From contig WQXU01000004.1 of NCBI GenBank assembly GCA_009781635.1, forward strand, positions 1 to 64,000: a stretch of 64,000 nucleotides of DNA. Reading direction: 5' to 3'. Every line of letters begins with the position of its first letter. The stretch's first letter is position 1. The notes beneath the pieces are model-generated. The model was not told the origin of the DNA, searched no databases, and worked only from the letters and a program-made list of their open reading frames with translations. Of the stretch, positions 2,385 through 43,301 are shown in pieces. The position numbers and the translations under genes were made by a program. This stretch comes from Treponema sp. GTDB lineage: Bacteria; Spirochaetota; Spirochaetia; Treponematales; Breznakiellaceae.

Positions 2385-3971
2385 ATGATGAAAAAATTCA
2401 AAAATCCTGTTTTAAGCGGATTCTACCCCGACCCTTCCATATGCAGGGCGGAAAAAGATTTTTACCTTGTTACATCAACATTTGCCTATTTCCCCGGCAT
2501 TCCTGTTTTTCACAGCAGGGACTTGTTAAACTGGAAGCAAATTGGAAATGCCATAGATCGTCCGGGACAGTTATGCTATGACGGACATCAGATTTCGCAG
2601 GGTTTATTTGCACCTACAATCCGCTATAACAGCGGCATCTTCTATATACTTTGCACATTAATAAAAAACGGCGGCAATTTTGTCATAACAGCAGAGCATC
2701 CGCAGGGGCCCTGGTCGGATCCTGTATGGCTTTCCGGAGCAGATGGAATAGATCCTTCCATTTTTTTTGACGATGACGGAAAGGCCTGGTACTGCGGAAC
2801 ACATCCAGCTCCCGAAGGCGAGGCATATTCTGGTAATTACGAGATCTATATTCGTGAAATGGATATATCCCTTATAAAAGCGGGAAAAAATCCTTTAATT
2901 GGTGAAAATATTGGGATCTGGCGGGGCGCGTTAAAAGACGTTATCTGGCCGGAAGGCCCTCATATTTATAAAAAGGACGGCTATTACTACTTGCTGCATG
3001 CGGAAGGCGGAACAGGACTTGATCACGCAGTTTGCATTGCAAGGGCGAAGGATATTAAAGGTCCGTGGGAGGGAAAAAAAAGTAATCCGATTATTACGCA
3101 CAGATCCCTTGGAAAAAAAGCGGATGTTATAAATGTGGGACATGCGGATTTCACAGACGACATAAACGGCAACTGGTGGATGGTTCTTTTGGCATCCCGT
3201 CCCATTGAAGGCGTTTGCCCTCTGGGACGCGAGACATTTATGGTTCCGGTTTATTGGGAGGATGGCTGGCCCTGTATTGTAACGGACACAGGACTTATCG
3301 AGAATGAATATCCCCTTCCCGATTTTGGCAAAGAGCATGAAATCCCCTGGAGCCATGAGAACCTCTGCGATCATTTTAATGGAAGACTTCCCCTTAACTG
3401 GCTTGCGCTTCGTATGCCTTCCAAAAAAGAAGATATTGCCTTTGGTTTTAATGAAAACAGCGGGGCCTTGCGTCTTTATACAAGGGCGCAGACAATACGC
3501 TCAAGGGAACATCCCTCTTTTGCAGGCAGAAGATTAAGGCATAAAAATTGGGCCTTTTGTGCTTCGATGGAGTTTACTCCCCTAACAGCTAACGACAATG
3601 CTGGAATCATCCTGCTGCAAAGCGAAGACTGGCATTACCGTTTTGAAGTTTACAATTCTGATGCAAAAAGTTTACGCCTTATACGCGCTGCCGGAAAAGA
3701 AGATGAGATTATCGGGGAAGTAAAAATTGATGAGCTTCCAAAACAAATTGTACTTGCGGCAAAATGCGAGAACATGGAAATCTATTTTTACTACGGCAAG
3801 GATCAATATTCTTTAAAATACTTCCCCTTTTCTGTCAAAGCGCACATAATAAGTACAGAATACGCCGGAGGATTTACAGGCGCGCTTGCAGGTGTGTTTG
3901 CAACTGCAAACGGACATGAATGTAATAATCATGCAGATATTTTTTGGGCCGAATACAGGGGACTAGTATGA
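2385..3971 (+). CDS. GH43-family glycoside hydrolase (beta-xylosidase/arabinofuranosidase type)
   Basis: A 528-residue inverting glycosidase of family 43, likely releasing xylose or arabinose from xylo-oligosaccharides. The N terminus carries the family hallmark Phe-Tyr-Pro-Asp-Pro-Ser, in which Asp16 is the predicted general base; further blade motifs are Gly-Ile-Asp-Pro-Ser-Ile-Phe-Phe near 125 and Trp-Pro-Glu-Gly-Pro-His, which contains the predicted acid Glu. The last 200 residues form the concanavalin-like beta-sandwich found in the long GH43 xylosidases. No signal peptide is seen, so the enzyme is probably cytoplasmic. It begins with two consecutive Met codons and ends in an ATGA overlap with the acetylesterase gene, making a two-gene unit for decorated xylan. 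Substrate choice between xylose and arabinose is an inference. Confidence 0.9.
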   Translation: MMKKFKNPVLSGFYPDPSICRAEKDFYLVTSTFAYFPGIPVFHSRDLLNWKQIGNAIDRPGQLCYDGHQISQGLFAPTIRYNSGIFYILCTLIKNGGNFVITAEHPQGPWSDPVWLSGADGIDPSIFFDDDGKAWYCGTHPAPEGEAYSGNYEIYIREMDISLIKAGKNPLIGENIGIWRGALKDVIWPEGPHIYKKDGYYYLLHAEGGTGLDHAVCIARAKDIKGPWEGKKSNPIITHRSLGKKADVINVGHADFTDDINGNWWMVLLASRPIEGVCPLGRETFMVPVYWEDGWPCIVTDTGLIENEYPLPDFGKEHEIPWSHENLCDHFNGRLPLNWLALRMPSKKEDIAFGFNENSGALRLYTRAQTIRSREHPSFAGRRLRHKNWAFCASMEFTPLTANDNAGIILLQSEDWHYRFEVYNSDAKSLRLIRAAGKEDEIIGEVKIDELPKQIVLAAKCENMEIYFYYGKDQYSLKYFPFSVKAHIISTEYAGGFTGALAGVFATANGHECNNHADIFWAEYRGLV

Positions 3972-34343: not shown

Positions 34344-34406
34344 TATAGAAAAAGTATTTTAACAAATATTTAGATCCAAAAATCTTGATATGTTATGGAG
34401 AAAATA

Positions 34407-34985
34407 ATGGAAATGAAAAATGATGTAGAAGCAGCGCCAAAAAAACGCACTTTTATCCAGCAGGAGAAAAAAGGGCTTCAAATACAGGATATACTGCTTA
34501 TAAGCATACTTTTGGCTTCAGGGGCAGTGCTAAAGTTTTTTGTCCCCAACCTTGGGGGGATGAAACCTAATTTTATAATCGCCATGTACTGCCTTACCAT
34601 CCTGCTTATAAAACCCCGTCTTTTTGAAGCTGCAATAATAGGGATACTTGCAGGCGCAATCAGTCAAATATTTCCCGCCCAGCCCTATATCAACTTTATA
34701 AGCGAACTTATTGGAGCGCTTGTTATGTGTCTTTTAATAAAAATCCCAATGGAAAAAATAAAAATTCCTGTAAAACCTATTATAAGTACTTTTTTAAGCA
34801 CTTTGGCAAGCGGTTTTACTTTTATCGGTGTTATGTATCTGTTATACTACGTACGGCCCAATATGCTTAATGTAGCGCCTGCTGCGCTTGCTGTATTTAT
34901 GGGTGTCGTCTTCGGCACTGCCACAATTAACTCGATAATCGTTCAGGTACTCTATATTCCATTAAAGCTGGCATTAAAAAAATGA
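34407..34985 (+). CDS. trpP: ECF transporter substrate-binding (S) component, TrpP-like
   Basis: A 192-residue membrane protein with about six helices. The middle shows Asn-Leu-Gly-Gly-Met-Lys-Pro-Asn-Phe, followed by a Gly/Ala-rich helix and an Ala-Thr-Ile-Asn-Ser-Ile region near the C terminus, which I recall as features of the TrpP (YhaG) tryptophan S-component family. The start at 34407 is chosen because GGAG lies six bases upstream; ATG 34395 has no ribosome-binding site. The following three genes supply the ATPases and the T protein, and a tryptophan T-box operon comes next, so tryptophan (or a precursor such as indole) is the likely substrate. The substrate is an inference from family recall plus context. 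Confidence 0.78.
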   Translation: MEMKNDVEAAPKKRTFIQQEKKGLQIQDILLISILLASGAVLKFFVPNLGGMKPNFIIAMYCLTILLIKPRLFEAAIIGILAGAISQIFPAQPYINFISELIGALVMCLLIKIPMEKIKIPVKPIISTFLSTLASGFTFIGVMYLLYYVRPNMLNVAPAALAVFMGVVFGTATINSIIVQVLYIPLKLALKK

Positions 34986-35842
34986 TAGAAATCCGGGGCT
35001 TGAGTTTCCTTTATACCGGCGGAAACAAGAACGCTCTTTCTGATATTAATCTTTCAATTGCAGAAGGGGAGTTTTTAGGTATCATAGGTTCCTCAGGCGC
35101 CGGAAAATCAACGTTGACTTATGCAATTAACGGAGTAATTCCCCATCATTTTAGCGGCGATTTTTACGGTGAAATTAGGGTAAACGGCATTGATACTCTG
35201 GAGTCCGGCATCGATACCCTTGCAAGACATGTCGGCAGCGTCTTCCAGGATATTGACGGTCAGATGGTCGCCCAGGTGGTTGAAGATGAAATCCTCTTTG
35301 GCATGGAAAATTTCGGAGTCCCCCATGATGAAATCGAGGGCCGTCTTGAAGATGCTTTGAGCGCAGCGGGTATAAAGAGCCTTAGGTACCGTGAAATGAG
35401 CTCACTCTCCGGCGGGCAGAAACAAAAGGCTGCGATTGCCGCAGTTATTGCGCTGCGCCCCCGCATTCTTGTACTGGATGAACCAACAGGAGAACTTGAT
35501 CCTCAAAGCAGCCGCAAAATTTTTGAATGCCTGAGAGAACTTAACGAGAAACACGGAATTACAATAATAGTTATAGAACAAAAAATTATGCTTCTGTGCG
35601 AGTTTGCAAAGCGCCTTGCCGTTATGAATAGCGGCCGTCTTGTTTGTGAAGGAACCGTGAAGGATGTGCTTCAAAAACCCAACCTTCTTGAAGATGCAGG
35701 CGTTAATATTCCGCGTGTCACTACTCTTGGCAACATGCTAAAGCAAAAGGGTTTATATTCCGGCATGCTTCCCAGAGATTTAAATGAAGCGCAGATTATG
35801 GTGCAGGAACTTATAAATAAAAATGGAGCAGCCAATGCTTAA
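34982..35842 (+). CDS. ecfA1: ECF transporter ATPase, first subunit
   Basis: One of two ATP-binding subunits powering the S/T membrane complex. In 286 residues it shows Walker A Gly-Ser-Ser-Gly-Ala-Gly-Lys-Ser-Thr (about 37-45), a Q-loop in Val-Phe-Gln-Asp-Ile-Asp-Gly-Gln, the ABC signature Leu-Ser-Gly-Gly-Gln-Lys-Gln-Lys, and Walker B Leu-Val-Leu-Asp-Glu-Pro-Thr-Gly-Glu-Leu-Asp-Pro. It overlaps the S component gene by ATGA. About 55 extra C-terminal residues follow the ATPase domain. ECF ATPases of this kind form heterodimers with the next gene product. Confidence 0.9.
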   Translation: MIEIRGLSFLYTGGNKNALSDINLSIAEGEFLGIIGSSGAGKSTLTYAINGVIPHHFSGDFYGEIRVNGIDTLESGIDTLARHVGSVFQDIDGQMVAQVVEDEILFGMENFGVPHDEIEGRLEDALSAAGIKSLRYREMSSLSGGQKQKAAIAAVIALRPRILVLDEPTGELDPQSSRKIFECLRELNEKHGITIIVIEQKIMLLCEFAKRLAVMNSGRLVCEGTVKDVLQKPNLLEDAGVNIPRVTTLGNMLKQKGLYSGMLPRDLNEAQIMVQELINKNGAANA

Positions 35843-36731
35843 GTTTGAAAAAGCAGGCTTTAGCTACCAAAGCCAAAAGCCGCGCAGGGGAAACAAAGCT
35901 ATTGACAGCGGCTCTGTATTAAAAGATATATCCTTTGAAATAAATCCAGGAGAGTTTATCGTTCTTCTTGGAGAGAACGGAGCGGGTAAATCCACTCTGT
36001 GTAAACTTGCAAACGGCCTTTTAAAACCTACAACAGGGAGAGTTCTTGTCGCAGGCGAAGATACAAGAACTATAAAAGTAAGCCGTATTGCAAGAAAGAC
36101 AGGTTTTCTTTTTCAGAACCCCGACAGACAGCTCTGCCGGAATACTGTCCGCGAAGAAATCCTCTTTGGCCTTGAATTTGCGCTTTCAGGAATTACATCC
36201 GGGGCAAAATCAAAGGCGCAGGCATCAGAAGAACTGGAACAGGAAAAAAAACGCCGCTGCCAGGAAATGCTGGACCTTTTCAGGCTGGACGGAGACCGCG
36301 ATCCCTTTGGACTTTCAAGAGGAGAACGCCAGCAGTGCGCGCTTGCCACTGTTCTTGCAAGGCGGCCGGAACTTCTCATCCTTGATGAACCCACTACAGG
36401 ACTTGATTACCGCGAATGCGTAACCATCATGGATATAATAGTCAAATTAAATTCATCAGAGAGCACTACAGTGTTTATGATTACGCATGATATGGAAGTT
36501 GCCGCTGATTTTGGAAAGCGCGCTCTTGTTTTAAGCGACGGACAGCTTATAGGAGACGGGCCTGTACGGGAAATTCTTAAAAATAAACCCCTGCTCGATC
36601 GCGCTTCCCTGCTCCCTCCCCAGATAGCATCCCTTGCTCTGCGAATGAACGAAAAATGTTTTGACAATGTTTTTTCGTTAGACGAAATGAGCGCCGCTTT
36701 GGAAAAAAATGTATCAGGAAAAGCAATATGA
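35835..36731 (+). CDS. ecfA2: ECF transporter ATPase, second subunit
   Basis: The partner ATPase, 298 residues from the ATG at 35835, which has GGAG seven bases upstream and overlaps the first ATPase gene by eight bases; ATG 35823 would add four residues. Walker A is Gly-Glu-Asn-Gly-Ala-Gly-Lys-Ser-Thr, Walker B Leu-Ile-Leu-Asp-Glu-Pro-Thr-Thr-Gly-Leu-Asp-Tyr, with a switch His in Met-Ile-Thr-His-Asp. The ABC signature is diverged, Leu-Ser-Arg-Gly-Glu-Arg-Gln-Gln instead of Leu-Ser-Gly-Gly-Gln, and an insertion of some 20 charged residues precedes it. ATGA overlap with the next gene. Confidence 0.9.
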   Translation: MLKFEKAGFSYQSQKPRRGNKAIDSGSVLKDISFEINPGEFIVLLGENGAGKSTLCKLANGLLKPTTGRVLVAGEDTRTIKVSRIARKTGFLFQNPDRQLCRNTVREEILFGLEFALSGITSGAKSKAQASEELEQEKKRRCQEMLDLFRLDGDRDPFGLSRGERQQCALATVLARRPELLILDEPTTGLDYRECVTIMDIIVKLNSSESTTVFMITHDMEVAADFGKRALVLSDGQLIGDGPVREILKNKPLLDRASLLPPQIASLALRMNEKCFDNVFSLDEMSAALEKNVSGKAI

Positions 36732-37495
36732 GCGGTTTATTAAATTATGCAGCAGGGAACTCCTTCCTTCATCGTCTTAATCCCACAGTTAAGCTCTTTT
36801 GCGCATTTTTTCTCTGCGCAAGCTGCTTTATAACAGGAAAAATTTCCTTTGCGCTTCTTATAATTTTATTTAATCTTTGCCTCTCTCTTGCATCCGGATG
36901 GGTTATTTTCGGACGGGCTGTCAAAATACTTTTTTCTCTGATGAAACTGTCGGTTGTGCTTTTTTTAATTCAGATCCTTTTTATCCGTGAAGGTGAAATT
37001 CTTTTTATTATTTTAAACAGTATTATTATTACAAAAGAAGGCCTTGATTTTTCTCTTCTCTTTGTCCTTCGCCTTATTGCCGCAACAATGCCTCTTAGCC
37101 TTGTCCTTTCGATAACAAGGATGAGTGATATTTCAGCTTCCCTCACCCGTACTTTCGGAATTCCCTACAAATATGCCTTTGCCCTGACAAGCGCCATGCG
37201 TTTTATTCCGCTTTTTTCCACTGAAATGGCCGGAATAAAAGAGACTCAAATGGCGCGCGGCATAGAACTGGATACAAAAAACTTTTTCAAAAAGATAAAA
37301 CTTTTCCTTCCGCTTTGCGCGCCTTTATTAATTTCTTCGGTACGCAAAATTGAAGGCGGCGCCATTTCCGCTGAACTTAGGGGTTTTAATTTCCGCACGC
37401 GAAAAAGCGGCTGGAAAAAATACCCTTTTACTTTTGCAGATTTTCTTGCGCTTGCTCTTTGTATTTCTATAATTGTGTTATCAGTATTTTATTGA
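36728..37495 (+). CDS. ecfT: ECF transporter transmembrane (T) component
   Basis: Scaffold subunit joining the ATPases to the S component. The 255 residues include about six hydrophobic helices and, after the fourth, the coupling-helix motifs Gln-Met-Ala-Arg-Gly-Ile-Glu and Ala-Glu-Leu-Arg-Gly-Phe-Asn, which correspond to the two Ala-Arg-Gly motifs of EcfT. The last codons overlap a 14-bp palindrome. A full S-A-A-T operon means this transporter carries its own energising module rather than sharing one. Confidence 0.9.
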   Translation: MSGLLNYAAGNSFLHRLNPTVKLFCAFFLCASCFITGKISFALLIILFNLCLSLASGWVIFGRAVKILFSLMKLSVVLFLIQILFIREGEILFIILNSIIITKEGLDFSLLFVLRLIAATMPLSLVLSITRMSDISASLTRTFGIPYKYAFALTSAMRFIPLFSTEMAGIKETQMARGIELDTKNFFKKIKLFLPLCAPLLISSVRKIEGGAISAELRGFNFRTRKSGWKKYPFTFADFLALALCISIIVLSVFY

Positions 37496-37506
37496 TTTAT
37501 AAATCA
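37493..37506. repeat. 14-bp palindrome between ecfT and the trp promoter
   Basis: TGATTTATAAATCA is a perfect palindrome covering the ecfT stop codon, centred about 31 bases upstream of the trp -35 box. It may be an operator, or chance in AT-rich DNA. Confidence 0.5.
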
Positions 37507-37529
37507 CCTTTAATATTTATAATAAAAGC

Positions 37530-37559
37530 TTGACAATAATATACCTGTTGTTTTATACT
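37530..37559 (+). promoter_or_regulatory. Promoter of the trp operon
   Basis: Consensus TTGACA (37530-37535) and TATACT (37554-37559) are separated by 18 bases. Predicted transcription start is near 37566, just before stem I of the T-box. Confidence 0.75.
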
Positions 37560-37570
37560 GCTTTAAACCG

Positions 37571-37837
37571 TTGAGACGGAGGTAGGCAATTACGCGCCAT
37601 ACAGAGAGTCCGGGAAGCTGAGAGCCGGGCAGGAAACGCGGATTACCGCTTGGGGCCGTCGAGGGCATGGAACAAAGAGGAAAACCTTGAGTATTCCATG
37701 ACGGGCAGGCATACGTAAGTTGCCGGGAGTATGATAGTACTCTGCAAAGCGCACGGGCAGCCGTGAATCAGGGTGGTACCGCGGATATTGTATTATTCGT
37801 CCCTGGCAAAGCTATGTCTTTGTCAGGGATTTTTTTT
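37571..37837 (+). ncRNA. Tryptophan T-box riboswitch leader
   Basis: A tRNA-sensing leader RNA of about 265 bases. The invariant T-box AGGGTGGTACCGCG is at 37770-37783, containing the UGGU that pairs with the tRNA acceptor end. Stem I closes with GACGG (37575-37579) and CCGTC (37656-37660); inside it GGTA/TACC (37581-37584/37644-37647) leaves a 3'-side loop, 37648-37655, holding the specifier TGG (37651-37653), a tryptophan codon. The distal part has the typical AGAGAG and GCTGAGAG motifs. A stem II (CATGGAA 37666-37672 with TTCCATG 37694-37700) and a CACGG/CCGTG stem before the T-box follow. Uncharged tRNA-Trp is expected to stabilise the antiterminator and switch on trpB onward. Confidence 0.93.
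37800..37837 (+). terminator. T-box-controlled intrinsic terminator
   Basis: A 12-bp stem (TCCCTGGCAAAG, 37800-37811, with CTTTGTCAGGGA, 37818-37829, one G-U pair), a six-base loop and eight T bases (37830-37837). It stands between the T-box sequence and trpB, so it is the regulated attenuator. Confidence 0.93.
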
Positions 37838-37865
37838 GTCCCCGCAAAGAAAAGGGGAAAAAAAT

Positions 37866-39050
37866 ATGTCAGACGGAAGGTTCGGGATTTACGGCGGTCA
37901 GTATATCCCTGAAACATTGATGAGCGCAGTTTTGGAATTATCACAGATATACAACCGTTGGAAAAGTGATCCTGATTTTATAAACGAGTTTAACAGTCTG
38001 CTAAAAAAATACGCAGGAAGACCTTCTCTTCTTTACCATGCGCAGAAAATGACTCATGATCTGGGCGGGGCAAAGATATATCTTAAACGCGAGGATCTAA
38101 ACCACACAGGCTCCCACAAGATTAATAATGTTTTGGGACAGGCGCTCCTTGCCAGAAAAATGGGCAAGAACCGTTTAATCGCCGAAACCGGAGCTGGACA
38201 GCACGGAGTTGCAACTGCCACCGCCGCTGCCCTGCTTGATATGGAATGCCTGATATTCATGGGCCGCGAAGATATGCAAAGGCAGGCTCTTAATGTTTAC
38301 CGCATGGAGCTTTTGGGAGCGAAGGTAAACTGCGTTACATCAGGAACTGCTACTCTAAAAGACGCCGTTAACGCAACGATGCGTGAATGGGCAGGACGTA
38401 TAAAGGACACTCATTACTGCCTTGGATCTGTTATGGGTCCTCATCCCTTCCCTACAATGGTACGTGATTTTCAGGCTGTTATAGGACGGGAAATTAAAGA
38501 GCAGATCATGTCTTTGGAAGGCAGGCTCCCAGACTCAATCATTGCCTGCATTGGCGGAGGAAGCAATGCCATTGGTTCTTTTTATGAGTTTATAAAAGAC
38601 GAGAGCGTTGAACTTGTCGGCTGTGAAGCAGCCGGAAGAGGAATAGATACAAGGGACAATGCGGCAACTTTAACCAATGGTTCAGTTGGAGTTTTCCACG
38701 GCATGAAATCCTATTTCTGCCAGGATGAGTTCGGGCAGATTGCGCCTGTATACTCAATCTCCGCCGGCCTGGATTATCCTGGTGTCGGCCCGGAGCACGC
38801 ATACCTTTTTGACATAAAACGGGCAAGGTATGTTGCGGTTACCGATGACGATGCAGTCGGCGCGTTTGAGTACTTAACAAAGACTGAAGGAATAATACCT
38901 GCAATTGAAAGCTCTCATGCTCTTGCATATGCAATGAAATACGCGCCAACACTGGGCAGGGACAGGATCATTGTCCTTACATTATCAGGAAGAGGCGACA
39001 AAGATGTGGCCTCGATTGCCAAATACAAGGGGGCTTGCGTCAATGAATAA
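37866..39050 (+). CDS. trpB: Tryptophan synthase beta subunit
   Basis: Condenses indole with serine using pyridoxal phosphate. The ATG at 37866, with AAGGGG upstream, gives 394 residues, the family length; a longer open frame reaches back into the T-box and is not used. The PLP lysine lies in His-Thr-Gly-Ser-His-Lys-Ile-Asn-Asn, followed by [10 protein letters not shown] and the phosphate-binding Gly-Gly-Gly-Ser-Asn-Ala-Ile-Gly. It is the conventional TrpB1 type, expected to pair with TrpA, which overlaps it by eight bases. Wording of the N terminus ([13 protein letters not shown]) is like clostridial TrpB as I recall it. Confidence 0.97.
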
Positions 39051-39829: not shown

Positions 39830-40843
39830 ATGGTTTTTATAATGAACCCTGATGTTACAAGGGAGCAGATTAATACATTTATTTCCGGCTGGGAGAATAA
39901 AGGTTTTTCCACCATTTTAAGCGTCGGAACCGAGCATACCGCTGTTTGTTTAATCGGCAATACGGCGGCTGTGGATTTGGATCATGTCGTGCAGACAAGC
40001 GGTGTTGTTTTATACGGCAAACGAATTACAGAACGTTATAAGGCAGTTAACAGGGTTGTCCACGAGGATAATACCATTGTAAGGACAGGGGACATCTGCA
40101 TTGGAGAAGGGTATTTTACTGTGATAGCAGGGCCATGTTCTGTGGAAAGCGAAGATCAGATAATTCAAATTGCAAAAAGTGTAAAAACAAGCGGTGCCAG
40201 AATCCTTCGCGGAGGAGCCTTCAAGCCAAGGACATCGCCTTATGATTTTCAGGGCAAAAAGGCAGAAGGACTTGAAATGCTTTCAGCGGCAAAAAAAGAG
40301 ACCGGCCTTCCCATTGTTACGGAAATCATGAATCAGACGCAGATTGATTTATTTGAAGATGTAGACATTGTGCAGGTAGGAGCGAGGAACATGCAGAACT
40401 TTGATTTACTAAAGGCGCTTGGCAGCCTGAAAAAGCCGGTATTGCTTAAAAGAGGCCCTGCCAACACAATTGATGAACTGCTTATGAGCGCCGAATATAT
40501 CGTATCATCCGGAAATGACAATGTCATATTATGCGAACGGGGCATCCGTTCCTTTGAAACGATGACGCGTAACACACTGGATTTATCGGCAGTTGTTCTT
40601 CTTAAGCAAAAATCGCATTTGCCTGTAATCGCCGATCCAAGCCACGCCTCAGGGATTCGCAGCCTTGTGCCGCCTTTGGCAAAAGCCATTCTGGCAGTCG
40701 GCGCGGACGGCTTAATGGTAGAAGCACATAACAATCCGGCGGCGGCTCTCTGCGACGGCGCTCAATCCCTTGATTTGGATCAGTTTGATACGCTAATGAG
40801 GGATTTAAAAAACCGCGCTCAGACAGAAGGAAAAATAATATGA
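39830..40843 (+). CDS. aroF: 3-deoxy-7-phosphoheptulonate (DAHP) synthase, AroA/Kdo8P-like type
   Basis: First enzyme of the shikimate pathway, condensing PEP and erythrose 4-phosphate. The 337 residues begin with a ~70-residue ferredoxin-like regulatory domain and continue with a barrel of type I-beta: Ile-Ala-Gly-Pro-Cys-Ser-Val-Glu near 103, Leu-Arg-Gly-Gly-Ala-Phe-Lys-Pro-Arg-Thr-Ser-Pro-Tyr, Gln-Val-Gly-Ala-Arg-Asn-Met-Gln-Asn and Asp-Pro-Ser-His-Ala-Ser-Gly. AAGGAG lies nine bases before the ATG at 39830. Being within the trp operon, it would supply chorismate under tryptophan control. Its ATGA overlap couples it to trpE. Confidence 0.94.
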   Translation: MVFIMNPDVTREQINTFISGWENKGFSTILSVGTEHTAVCLIGNTAAVDLDHVVQTSGVVLYGKRITERYKAVNRVVHEDNTIVRTGDICIGEGYFTVIAGPCSVESEDQIIQIAKSVKTSGARILRGGAFKPRTSPYDFQGKKAEGLEMLSAAKKETGLPIVTEIMNQTQIDLFEDVDIVQVGARNMQNFDLLKALGSLKKPVLLKRGPANTIDELLMSAEYIVSSGNDNVILCERGIRSFETMTRNTLDLSAVVLLKQKSHLPVIADPSHASGIRSLVPPLAKAILAVGADGLMVEAHNNPAAALCDGAQSLDLDQFDTLMRDLKNRAQTEGKII

Positions 40844-42276
40844 TAAAACCATCTTTGGAAGAAATAAAAAAAGTTTCTAAAGGGTATAAAGTATCCCCTT
40901 TAGCGCTGGAAATTTTCTCCGACCAGAAAACTCCAATAGAAGTATTAAAGAACTTAAGAATAAAAAGCGATATGTGGTTCATTCTGGAAAGTGTAAACAG
41001 CGGCAGCAGCTGGGGAAGATATACATTCTTGGGATACAAGCCTGTTCTGAGCGTTTACGGAAAAGGAAAAAATACTAAAGTAAACGGAGAGGATACAGAA
41101 AAAGACGCTCTTTATGTAATAAGAGAATGGATGTCGCATTACAAAAGCCCTTCCTTTCCGTATCTGCCCCCGTTTACAGGCGGATTTGCAGGATATTTTT
41201 CCTATGACTTTGTAGAAAATTTCATTGCGGATCTGGAATTGAAAGCAAGAGACGAAGATGGTTTCAGGGATTTTCATTTAATGCTAATAGATAAAGTGAT
41301 TGCCTTTGACAATTTTAAACAGAAAATTTTTATAATCGTAAATATTCCTGTTGAAAATCTGGAAGACAATTACATTAAAGGTATTACAGAACTTAAAGAC
41401 ATTGAAAGACTAATATTGGGAAATGCATCAGGTGATGAACAGTCTTTTTGCGGTGAGTTTACATCACGTTTTTCCAAAGACTCTTTCAAAGACATGGTTG
41501 AAAACATAAAAACGCATATTGCAAACAGGGAAATTCTCCAGGCTGTCGTTTCCAACCGTTTTAAAGCTCCCTTCAGGGGCAGTCTTATGAATGTGTACCG
41601 CCTTTTGCGTACAATAAACCCCTCACCTTATATGGTTTATATGCGTCTTGACGATATAGAAATTGCCTGCTCATCCCCTGAAACTCTTGTGTCTGTGCAA
41701 AATGGGGAAATAAACTCCTTCCCTCTTGCCGGGACCTGCCCCCGCGGAAAGACTGAAGAAGAGGATGCGGCATTTATTAATGCTCTTTTAAAAGATGAAA
41801 AGGAACTTAATGAGCATGAAATGCTTGTTGAGCTTGCCCGCGAAGACATAGGGCGCATAAGCCGCAGCGGCAGCGTAAGTGTGCGCGGCTACAGAAAAAT
41901 CAAGAAATTTTCCCATGTCAGCCATATATCTTCCAATATTACAGGCCGCCTGCAGGAAGGCCTTGATTCACTTGATGTTATTGCATCTACTCTCCCTGCA
42001 GGAACTCTTTCCGGCTCTCCCAAAAAACGCGCCTGTGAAATTATTGATAAATATGAAGGCGTAAAACGCGGAGTATACGGCGGAGCCATCGGTTATATCG
42101 ACTTTACAGGGAACATGGACATGTGCATTGGGATTCGCATGGCGGTATTAAAGGACAATCATGTAACTGTTCAGGCCGGAGCCGGGATTGTTTTGGAGAG
42201 CGTAGCTGAAAAAGAATATCATGAAACCTGCAACAAGGCGCAGGCTCTTATGCAGGCATTAATAAATTCCAATTAG
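40840..42276 (+). CDS. trpE: Anthranilate synthase component I
   Basis: Converts chorismate to anthranilate. The 478-residue protein has the N-terminal allosteric region with Phe-Ile-Leu-Glu-Ser-Val near 47, equivalent to the tryptophan-binding Leu-Leu-Glu-Ser motif, and a chorismate-binding domain with Pro-Ser-Pro-Tyr-Met-Val-Tyr, Leu-Ala-Gly-Thr-Cys-Pro-Arg-Gly, Thr-Leu-Pro-Ala-Gly-Thr-Leu-Ser-Gly-Ser-Pro-Lys and Gly-Gly-Ala-Ile-Gly-Tyr. It lacks a fused glutaminase and no trpG follows; the amidotransferase must come from elsewhere (for example a shared PabA) or free ammonia must be used. PabB is the alternative name, but operon context favours TrpE. Confidence 0.94.
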   Translation: MIKPSLEEIKKVSKGYKVSPLALEIFSDQKTPIEVLKNLRIKSDMWFILESVNSGSSWGRYTFLGYKPVLSVYGKGKNTKVNGEDTEKDALYVIREWMSHYKSPSFPYLPPFTGGFAGYFSYDFVENFIADLELKARDEDGFRDFHLMLIDKVIAFDNFKQKIFIIVNIPVENLEDNYIKGITELKDIERLILGNASGDEQSFCGEFTSRFSKDSFKDMVENIKTHIANREILQAVVSNRFKAPFRGSLMNVYRLLRTINPSPYMVYMRLDDIEIACSSPETLVSVQNGEINSFPLAGTCPRGKTEEEDAAFINALLKDEKELNEHEMLVELAREDIGRISRSGSVSVRGYRKIKKFSHVSHISSNITGRLQEGLDSLDVIASTLPAGTLSGSPKKRACEIIDKYEGVKRGVYGGAIGYIDFTGNMDMCIGIRMAVLKDNHVTVQAGAGIVLESVAEKEYHETCNKAQALMQALINSN

Positions 42277-42290
42277 TAAGGATATAAAAA

Positions 42291-43301
42291 ATGATCAGAG
42301 AAGCAATTTTATCCCTTTCCAAAAGGGAGGATCTTTCTTACGAGAAGGCGAAGGCTGTAATGGACGAGATTATGAGCGGACTTGCAACGCCTGTTCAGAT
42401 GAGCGCCTATCTTACAGCTTTAAGTTTGAAAGGCGAAACCATAAACGAGATTACAGGTTCCGCTTTCGGGATGCGTTCTCACTGCATTCGTCTCCTGCAT
42501 GATGCCGATGCGCTTGAGATTGTCGGCACCGGAGGAGATCATGCCAATACATTTAATATATCCACAACAGCGGCGATTATCACGGCGGCGGCTGGCATCC
42601 CTGTAGCAAAACACGGCAACCGCAGCGCATCAAGTAAATGCGGGTCCGCCGATGTACTGGAAGCCCTGGGCATCAATATCGGCATCCCTCCTGAAAAAAG
42701 CGCCGGATTGCTTGCGAATATAGGAATATGTTTTATGTTCGCGCAGAATTATCACATCGCGATGAAATTTGTATCTCCAATCCGGCGCGAACTTGGTATA
42801 AGGACTGTTTTTAATATTATAGGACCTCTTACCAATCCTGCAGGAGCGAAGATGGAATTGATGGGCGTTTACGAACGTGAGCTTGTGGAGCCTTTAGCGC
42901 AGGTTTTATGCAATCTGGGAGTAAAAAGCGCCATGGTTGTTCACGGAGATGACGGTCTTGATGAAATTTCACTTTGCGCGCCTACTTTTGTATGCGAAGT
43001 AAGAAACGGATGGGTGCGTTCATACACAATCACGCCGGAACAGTTCGGGTTTAAGCGCTGCGATAAAAAAGAGCTGCAGGGCGGTCCGCCGTCTGAAAAC
43101 GCAGGGATTCTTAAGGCCTTATTGAGCGGACAAAGGGGCGCCAAAAGAGATGCTGCATTATTAAATGCAGCGGCGGCCATGTTTGTTACGGGCAAATATG
43201 AATCGATAGAAGATGCTGTACAAATTGCAAGTGAAGTAATCGACAGCGGCAAGGCAATGAAAAAGCTGGAAGATTTTATCCGCTTTTCAAACGAGAAATG
43301 A
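42291..43301 (+). CDS. trpD: Anthranilate phosphoribosyltransferase
   Basis: Transfers phosphoribose from PRPP to anthranilate. The 336 residues include Val-Gly-Thr-Gly-Gly-Asp near 78 (PRPP loop), Phe-Asn-Ile-Ser-Thr, Lys-His-Gly-Asn-Arg-Ser-Ala-Ser-Ser-Lys-Cys-Gly-Ser-Ala-Asp and Arg-Thr-Val-Phe-Asn-Ile-Ile-Gly-Pro-Leu-Thr-Asn-Pro. There is no N-terminal glutaminase fusion, so it does not supply the missing TrpG. It starts 14 bases after trpE with AAGGA in the gap and overlaps trpC by ATGA. Confidence 0.96.
   Translation: MIREAILSLSKREDLSYEKAKAVMDEIMSGLATPVQMSAYLTALSLKGETINEITGSAFGMRSHCIRLLHDADALEIVGTGGDHANTFNISTTAAIITAAAGIPVAKHGNRSASSKCGSADVLEALGINIGIPPEKSAGLLANIGICFMFAQNYHIAMKFVSPIRRELGIRTVFNIIGPLTNPAGAKMELMGVYERELVEPLAQVLCNLGVKSAMVVHGDDGLDEISLCAPTFVCEVRNGWVRSYTITPEQFGFKRCDKKELQGGPPSENAGILKALLSGQRGAKRDAALLNAAAAMFVTGKYESIEDAVQIASEVIDSGKAMKKLEDFIRFSNEK

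What the first reader, a model, noticed from the sequence alone, without database searches (positions are those of the whole stretch)
37571..37837. Tryptophan T-box riboswitch in a treponeme-like genome
All main parts are visible: T-box sequence, UGG in the stem I specifier loop, stem II, and a terminator with a U-run directly before trpB. T-boxes are known mainly from Firmicutes and Actinobacteria and a few other phyla; I do not know of descriptions from spirochaetes. The alternative TGG at 37668-37670 is inside stem II, so the specifier assignment is firm.
Basis: partly seen in the sequence, partly recalled or inferred. Interest (0 to 1): 0.72.

Follow-up and report, generated by a model that had tools for sequence, protein, structure and literature searches.

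The report
Tryptophan T-box acquired by a spirochaete
A spirochaete related to the termite-gut treponemes carries, in front of its tryptophan-making genes, a standard RNA switch that senses uncharged tryptophan tRNA; its closest relatives are in gut Clostridia, so it was probably acquired from them, and a search shows that this kind of switch is common in spirochaetes although I found no paper describing it there.

Summary
A complete class I T-box leader lies at 37562-37837, directly before a trpB-trpA-DAHP synthase-trpE-trpD-trpC-trpF operon. Rfam RF00230 matches end to end (74.9 bits, E 1.5e-16), below Rfam's curated cutoff of 93, so a default scan reports nothing. Promoter, kink-turn, AG bulge and distal loop, stems II, IIA/B and III, UGGU box, antiterminator and U-tailed terminator are all present. 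Fourteen related Trp T-boxes support the fold by strong covariation. UGG is the specifier. It sits one base off the usual register, but GGG (the in-register triplet) fails: tRNA-Gly ends in U73, whereas tRNA-Trp ends in G73 and pairs with UGGU by the G:U wobble common in Trp T-boxes. The host is a spirochaete: its family contains Treponema caldaria, matched by exact genome length. T-boxes turn up in 72 of 393 Spirochaetota genomes, mostly before thrS; I found no published description. The window's T-box differs from those. It nests among Clostridial Trp T-boxes, occurs in 4 of 200 family genomes (one genus), and accompanies Clostridia-like TrpB in three of these. It was probably acquired from gut Clostridia. 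New member of a known kind; no experiment was run.

The parts
37530..37559 (+). sigma-70-type promoter, TTGACA - 18 nt - TATACT; predicted start of RNA near 37565
   Evidence: consensus scan, 11 of 12 matches; a consensus match, not a mapped start
37562..37837 (+). whole Trp T-box leader, sensing domain plus expression platform
   Evidence: RF00230 full-length hit 37562-37807 plus terminator and U-run
37568..37664 (+). stem I, with kink-turn at its base (CCGTTGAGACGG 37568-37579 / CCGTCGAGG 37656-37664)
   Evidence: Rfam alignment, coordinates, helices with compensatory changes
37601..37608 (+). AG bulge ACAGAGAG, half of the tRNA-elbow contact
   Evidence: sequence and Rfam alignment; invariant or nearly so in 14 Trp T-boxes
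37617..37623 (+). distal loop GCTGAGA of stem I, other half of the tRNA-elbow contact
   Evidence: Rfam alignment, coordinates
37651..37653 (+). specifier UGG (Trp codon) in the stem I internal loop; followed by GG where relatives have a single A or G
   Evidence: alignment with Clostridial CAAA-UGG-A and sister G175 CAGA-UGG-GG
37666..37700 (+). stem II (CATGGAA 37666-37672 / TTCCATG 37694-37700) with GAGTA S-turn strand 37689-37693
37701..37716 (+). stem IIA/B element (ACG / CGT)
   Evidence: pairs invariant, so no covariation test
37726..37743 (+). extra hairpin between IIA/B and stem III, shared with Clostridial Trp T-boxes
   Evidence: helix 8, 3 of 5 pairs with compensatory change
37751..37765 (+). 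stem III
37769..37805 (+). antiterminator, 7-nt bulge UGGUACC at 37774-37780; UGGU 37774-37777 pairs with the tRNA 3' end
   Evidence: nascent fold -13.2 kcal/mol; helices 10 and 11
37799..37837 (+). intrinsic terminator (13-pair stem, T8), overlapping the antiterminator at 37799-37805
   Evidence: (-19.3 kcal/mol)
37850..37857 (+). ribosome-binding site AAAAGGGG of trpB
   Evidence: sequence
37866..39050 (+). trpB
   Evidence: TIGR00263, 644 bits
39043..39825 (+). trpA
   Evidence: TIGR00262
39842..40843 (+). DAHP synthase (aroF type)
   Evidence: TIGR01361
40840..42276 (+). trpE
   Evidence: TIGR00564, 470.9 bits, under the curated cutoff of 517.7
42291..43301 (+). trpD
   Evidence: TIGR01245
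43298..44089 (+). trpC
   Evidence: NF001377
44086..44709 (+). trpF
   Evidence: position and sequence; its translation used as query matched the trpF position of 70-odd trp operons; not scanned against a family library
34395..37495 (+). upstream ECF transporter cassette: TrpP-like S component (34395-34985), two ATPases, T component; probably tryptophan uptake; not downstream of the T-box
   Evidence: PF17099 TrpP 39.9 bits over cutoff 27.2; ECF models

Best explanation
It is a transcriptional (class I) T-box riboswitch that reads tRNA-Trp and controls the trp operon. RNA made from the promoter at 37530 folds into stem I, whose UGG (37651-37653) pairs with the CCA anticodon of tRNA-Trp while the AG bulge and distal loop grip the tRNA elbow. 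If the tRNA is uncharged, its 3' end (G73-CCA) pairs with UGGU in the antiterminator bulge, the antiterminator (37769-37805) holds, and polymerase reads into trpB. If the tRNA carries tryptophan its 3' end cannot pair, the more stable terminator (37799-37830 + U8) forms, and the operon is off. Shown here: the parts, their conservation and covariation, the mutually exclusive folds, the tRNA match. Inferred from established T-box work: the switching itself. The element and the trpB behind it were probably acquired from gut Clostridia; the native T-boxes of spirochaetes, mostly before thrS, are a separate set.
For: Full-length RF00230 match. Across 14 Trp T-boxes 89.4% of cells pair, 30 of 52 pairs have compensatory change (shuffles 14.5; 0/500), collapsing when slid by one column; the terminator behaves likewise, 95.2% and 8 of 13. 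Antiterminator -13.2 in nascent RNA; full platform -25.3 with terminator against -16.9 with antiterminator forced, so OFF is the default. tRNA-Trp gene has CCA anticodon and G73; TBDB reports U against G73 in 46% of Trp T-boxes (PMC7778990). In the genus the same element precedes trpB-trpA-trpD-trpC-trpF (G175), a transporter plus trpD-trpC-trpF-trpB-trpA (G157), and the same transporter (G156). Import: 67.7% mean identity to Clostridial Trp T-boxes against 45.9% to spirochaete thrS T-boxes, tree support 1.000 for the Trp set; Trp-type stem I in 4 of 200 family genomes, one genus; TrpB of window and G175 groups with a termite-gut Clostridiales record (99), G157 with other Clostridia (97), apart from the 29-row family clade (95); infB on the same contig is 74-85% identical to family members, so the contig is not a stray Clostridial one.
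Against: Score below Rfam's cutoff (as are most spirochaete and all ten Clostridial Trp T-boxes scanned here). Specifier one base out of register, and the loop lacks the usual AGUA/GAA strands. No RNA or expression data. Trp T-boxes could cluster by specificity and not by descent, and the comparison set of named TrpBs was chosen by similarity to the window's TrpB; G156 has the T-box with a native-type TrpB elsewhere, so the T-box and trpB histories are not one simple event. Direction of transfer is inferred from rarity in spirochaetes and nesting among Clostridia.
Confidence: 0.93

Rival explanations
1. A T-box that reads glycine tRNA: the in-register triplet of the specifier loop is GGG, so tRNA-Gly(CCC) would be the ligand.
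For: Aligned to RF00230, and to thrS T-boxes reading ACC, the codon columns hold GGG 37652-37654.
Against: All three tRNA-Gly genes looked at end in U73, which does not pair with UGGU. UGG is present in the loop of all 14 aligned relatives and is in register in Clostridia and G156; GGG is not. The regulated genes make tryptophan. TBDB treats a shift of one base as an accepted frame (PMC7778990).
Confidence: 0.03
2. A decayed, non-switching copy: shape kept, function lost after transfer.
For: Extra base after the specifier, altered loop strands, stem II and IIA/B lost in sisters G175 and G157.
Against: Box, bulge, antiterminator and terminator are intact, and compensatory pairs are kept; T-boxes without stem II are known to work (glyQS of Bacillus subtilis, own knowledge); promoter and operon are intact.
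Confidence: 0.05
3. Classical ribosome-mediated attenuation with a Trp-rich leader peptide.
For: A terminator stands before trpB.
Against: No frame between promoter and terminator holds a short open frame with tandem Trp codons; only single W residues occur. The conserved T-box parts would be unexplained.
Confidence: 0.01
4. The T-box is vertically inherited in spirochaetes and its specificity switched from Thr to Trp, without import.
For: T-boxes are widespread in the phylum (72 of 393 genomes), and codon switches in T-boxes are known.
Against: G000's own thrS has a leader of some 60 bases with no T-box; the Trp element shares the extra hairpin and 61-73% identity with Clostridial Trp T-boxes and only 37-50% with spirochaete thrS and Tyr ones; TrpB is Clostridia-like too.
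Confidence: 0.1

Closest known systems
Trp T-boxes of Clostridia before trpB or trpE (for example L090 Mediterraneibacter, L040 and L051 Lachnospiraceae, L057 and L058 Ruminococcus)
   Same: Same order of parts, same extra hairpin between IIA/B and III, UGG specifier, 61-73% identity
   Different: Host phylum; one extra base after UGG; UGGU where most have UGGC (the Ruminococcus copies L058 and L075 also have UGGU)
trpXYZ Trp T-box of Streptococcus suis (PMC9382623)
   Same: UGG specifier, transcriptional terminator and antiterminator, Trp genes; there shown by mutation to work
   Different: Regulates a transporter; UGGC box; Gram-positive host
thrS T-boxes of Spirochaetota (Treponema caldaria L006 and others)
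   Same: Same Rfam family, same phylum
   Different: ACC specifier, separate branch of the tree, 37-50% identity to the window's

Membership tests
T-box riboswitch, class I transcriptional (RF00230) | Covariance-model match over the whole model | tested here: met
   1-219/219, 74.9 bits, E 1.5e-16
T-box riboswitch, class I transcriptional (RF00230) | Score above Rfam's curated gathering cutoff (93 bits) | tested here: not met
   74.9 bits. A convention of the database and not a feature of the RNA: all ten Clostridial Trp T-boxes scanned, before annotated trp genes, also miss it, the best at 92.5
T-box riboswitch, class I transcriptional (RF00230) | T-box sequence with UGGN in a 7-nt bulge of an antiterminator | tested here: met
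   AGGGUGGUACCGCG 37770-37783, fold with 7-nt bulge
T-box riboswitch, class I transcriptional (RF00230) | Stem I with kink-turn, AG bulge and distal loop | tested here: met
T-box riboswitch, class I transcriptional (RF00230) | Specifier codon in the stem I loop that fits the regulated genes | tested here: met
   UGG 37651-37653 before the trp operon; one base out of register
T-box riboswitch, class I transcriptional (RF00230) | N of UGGN pairs with the discriminator base of the cognate tRNA | tested here: met
   U with G73 of tRNA-Trp, wobble; the common alternative in Trp T-boxes
T-box riboswitch, class I transcriptional (RF00230) | Terminator with U-run mutually exclusive with the antiterminator | tested here: met
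   overlap 37799-37805, both covary
T-box riboswitch, class I transcriptional (RF00230) | Read-through induced by uncharged cognate tRNA | not testable with these tools
   needs in vitro transcription or a reporter
Clostridial Trp T-box lineage | Groups with Clostridial Trp T-boxes and not with spirochaete T-boxes | tested here: met
   nucleotide tree, support 1.000 for the Trp set; quick tree, limited sampling

The most novel reading that the evidence does not exclude
After its import the Trp T-box of this genus is being remodelled: an extra base after the specifier and loss of the usual specifier-loop strands in the window and G175, loss of stem II and IIA/B in G175 and G157, so that codon reading works in a shifted geometry not described for T-boxes.
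Probability: 0.15. Interest if true: 0.5.

Novelty: new member of a known kind. Interest (0 to 1): 0.42.

Why it matters
The 2008 census (PMC2494555) found no T-box in its 6 spirochaete genomes, and my literature searches found no later description there. The mechanism is known, so the gain is in distribution and evolution: a second lineage of outer-membrane bacteria that senses tRNA charging, a native thrS set beside an imported trp set in one family, and a four-species case for following a riboswitch after transfer. It also shows that Rfam's cutoff hides most of them.

Tried and rejected
Default Rfam scan found nothing: the cutoff is too strict, not the RNA absent. Pattern search for tRNA-Trp hit a non-tRNA site; solved with RF00005 and ARAGORN. 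I first expected the T-boxes found in the family to precede trpB; nearly all precede thrS. Stray Clostridial contig in a MAG: rejected, infB on the same contig is spirochaetal. Leader peptide: rejected. Glycine specificity: rejected. L031, the nearest Clostridial TrpB, has no T-box, so it is not the direct donor of the pair. RNAalifold also pairs the conserved ACCGUUGA of stem I with UCAAGGU of the box region, but nearly all those pairs never vary, so it is not evidence. Literature searches for T-boxes in spirochaetes gave no description.

Full report
What is there. The whole-window Rfam scan at curated cutoffs is empty, but a scan of 37450-37900 without the cutoff gives RF00230 (T-box) at 37562-37807, model positions 1-219 of 219, 74.9 bits, E 1.5e-16. 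It is the only T-box in the genome. A near-perfect promoter ends at 37559, so the RNA starts just where the T-box begins. The terminator follows at 37799-37830 with eight U, and trpB starts at 37866. The operon is trpB, trpA, DAHP synthase, trpE, trpD, trpC, trpF (trpF by sequence and operon comparison).

Structure. I aligned 14 Trp T-boxes: the window, three of the same genus and ten from named records, nine of Clostridia and one of Parasutterella. For the T-box fold, 89.4% of cells pair, 30 of 52 pairs show a change on both sides (14.5 expected from shuffles, none of 500 as high), and sliding one arm by one column drops pairing to about 41%. The terminator gives 95.2% and 8 of 13 pairs. RNAalifold, free to choose, finds 40 of 64 pairs with double changes. 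The antiterminator forms in the nascent RNA (-13.2 kcal/mol), but once the terminator is transcribed the terminator state wins (-25.3 against -16.9 kcal/mol), as expected for a switch that is off unless tRNA stabilises the antiterminator.

Which tRNA. In thrS T-boxes of this phylum the loop reads GAAA-ACC-A or C; in the Tyr ones the triplet is UAC. Clostridial Trp T-boxes read CAAA-UGG-A, then CC. The window reads CGCU-UGG-GG, then CC: one base more after UGG, so the in-register triplet would be GGG. The sister G175 reads CAGA-UGG-GG, G156 has UAAA-UGG-G in register, G157 has UGG-AA. Only UGG is common to all. tRNA-Trp of this genome has anticodon CCA and G73 without an encoded CCA; UGGU pairs with G73 by a wobble that TBDB reports in 46% of Trp T-boxes (PMC7778990). 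The tRNA-Gly genes have U73 and do not fit. The specifier is therefore UGG, by comparison and not by position alone.

Which organism. The family of the window's genome contains G014, whose single contig is 3,239,340 bp, the exact length of Treponema (Spirochaeta) caldaria H1T (PMC3739177). From memory, G142 and G144 (3,855,671 and 4,059,867 bp) have the lengths of T. azotonutricium ZAS-9 and T. primitia ZAS-2; I did not verify these. infB on the window's contig is 74-85% identical to family members.

How widespread. RF00230 matches 42 of 200 genomes of the family and 72 of 393 genomes spread over the phylum, 41 of 168 genera, only 25 genomes above the cutoff; the strict filters lose some weak matches, so these are lower bounds. 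ThrS is encoded in 81 of 113 fetched loci (a few loci cover the same site). Other genes are a tyrosine phenol-lyase/tryptophanase-like enzyme and sodium symporters with UAC, and a few more. Species identified by exact genome length include Spirochaeta smaragdinae (4,653,970; PMC3035371) and Salinispira pacifica (3,782,798; PMC4511686), both with the T-box before thrS. The 2008 census lists 0 T-boxes in 6 Spirochaetes (PMC2494555). None of my searches found a later description; the library lacks most subscription papers, and Rfam or TBDB may list some copies without comment.

Where the Trp one came from. The window's T-box is 83% identical to that of G175, 61-73% to Clostridial-type Trp T-boxes and 37-50% to spirochaete thrS and other T-boxes; in a nucleotide tree the Trp set is one branch with support 1.000 and the genus nests among Clostridia. 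A model of the Trp-type stem I finds only 4 of 200 family genomes, all of this genus, and one more in the 393-genome phylum sample, G575 in another family. Where linked to trp genes, the T-box accompanies Clostridia-like TrpB: window and G175 group with a termite-gut Clostridiales record (99), G157 with two other Clostridia (97), while 29 other family TrpBs form their own clade (95). G156 has the T-box before the transporter and a native-type TrpB elsewhere. The genome's own thrS has no T-box. I conclude that a Clostridial Trp T-box was imported, probably with trp genes. Whether once or more is open: the trees are quick, and the named TrpB set was picked by similarity to the query.

Verdict. 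A real, ordinary-looking Trp T-box in an unusual host. The mechanism is inferred from well-studied relatives, such as the Trp T-box of S. suis trpXYZ tested by mutation (PMC9382623); nothing was tested at the bench.

Noticed in passing
L006, L230 and the loci: thrS T-boxes (ACC specifier) are widespread in Spirochaetota, including Treponema caldaria, Spirochaeta smaragdinae and Salinispira pacifica, while the window's own genome has none before thrS.
   Followed up: partly
L238 (G575, another family), minus strand 2547-2791: Second, probably independent Trp T-box in Spirochaetota: UGG specifier, UGGC box, before an ABC transporter of the TrpX type (PF04392, then PF02653 permease).
   Followed up: partly
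L106 (Parasutterella muris, NZ_WSRP01000022.1), 3428-3697: Trp T-box before trpBA in a named strain of Sutterellaceae (Pseudomonadota), its TrpB nested among Clostridia: another apparent import.
   Followed up: partly
L029 (G175) and L022 (G157): Their Trp T-boxes have lost most of stem II and IIA/B (178 and 194 nt against 246), although close relatives keep them.
   Followed up: no
window 34395-37495: ECF transporter cassette with a TrpP-type S component just upstream of the T-box: tryptophan uptake next to synthesis, not itself behind the T-box.
   Followed up: partly
L219 3017-4465 and L221 3-1181 (minus): A sodium:sulfate symporter family (PF00939) transporter stands between the Trp T-box and trpD-trpC-trpF-trpB-trpA in G157 and behind the T-box in G156: a candidate for transport of tryptophan or a precursor.
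   Followed up: no
genome G000; window 40840-42276: No TrpG/PabA above the curated cutoff in a 99.3% complete genome (best 33 bits), although trpE is present; anthranilate synthase may run on ammonia or use a divergent subunit.
   Followed up: no
L115 and L175, L178, L179: Spirochaete T-boxes with UAC (Tyr) before a tyrosine phenol-lyase/tryptophanase-like enzyme (L115) and, in L175, L178 and L179, sites assigned to sodium symporters.
   Followed up: partly
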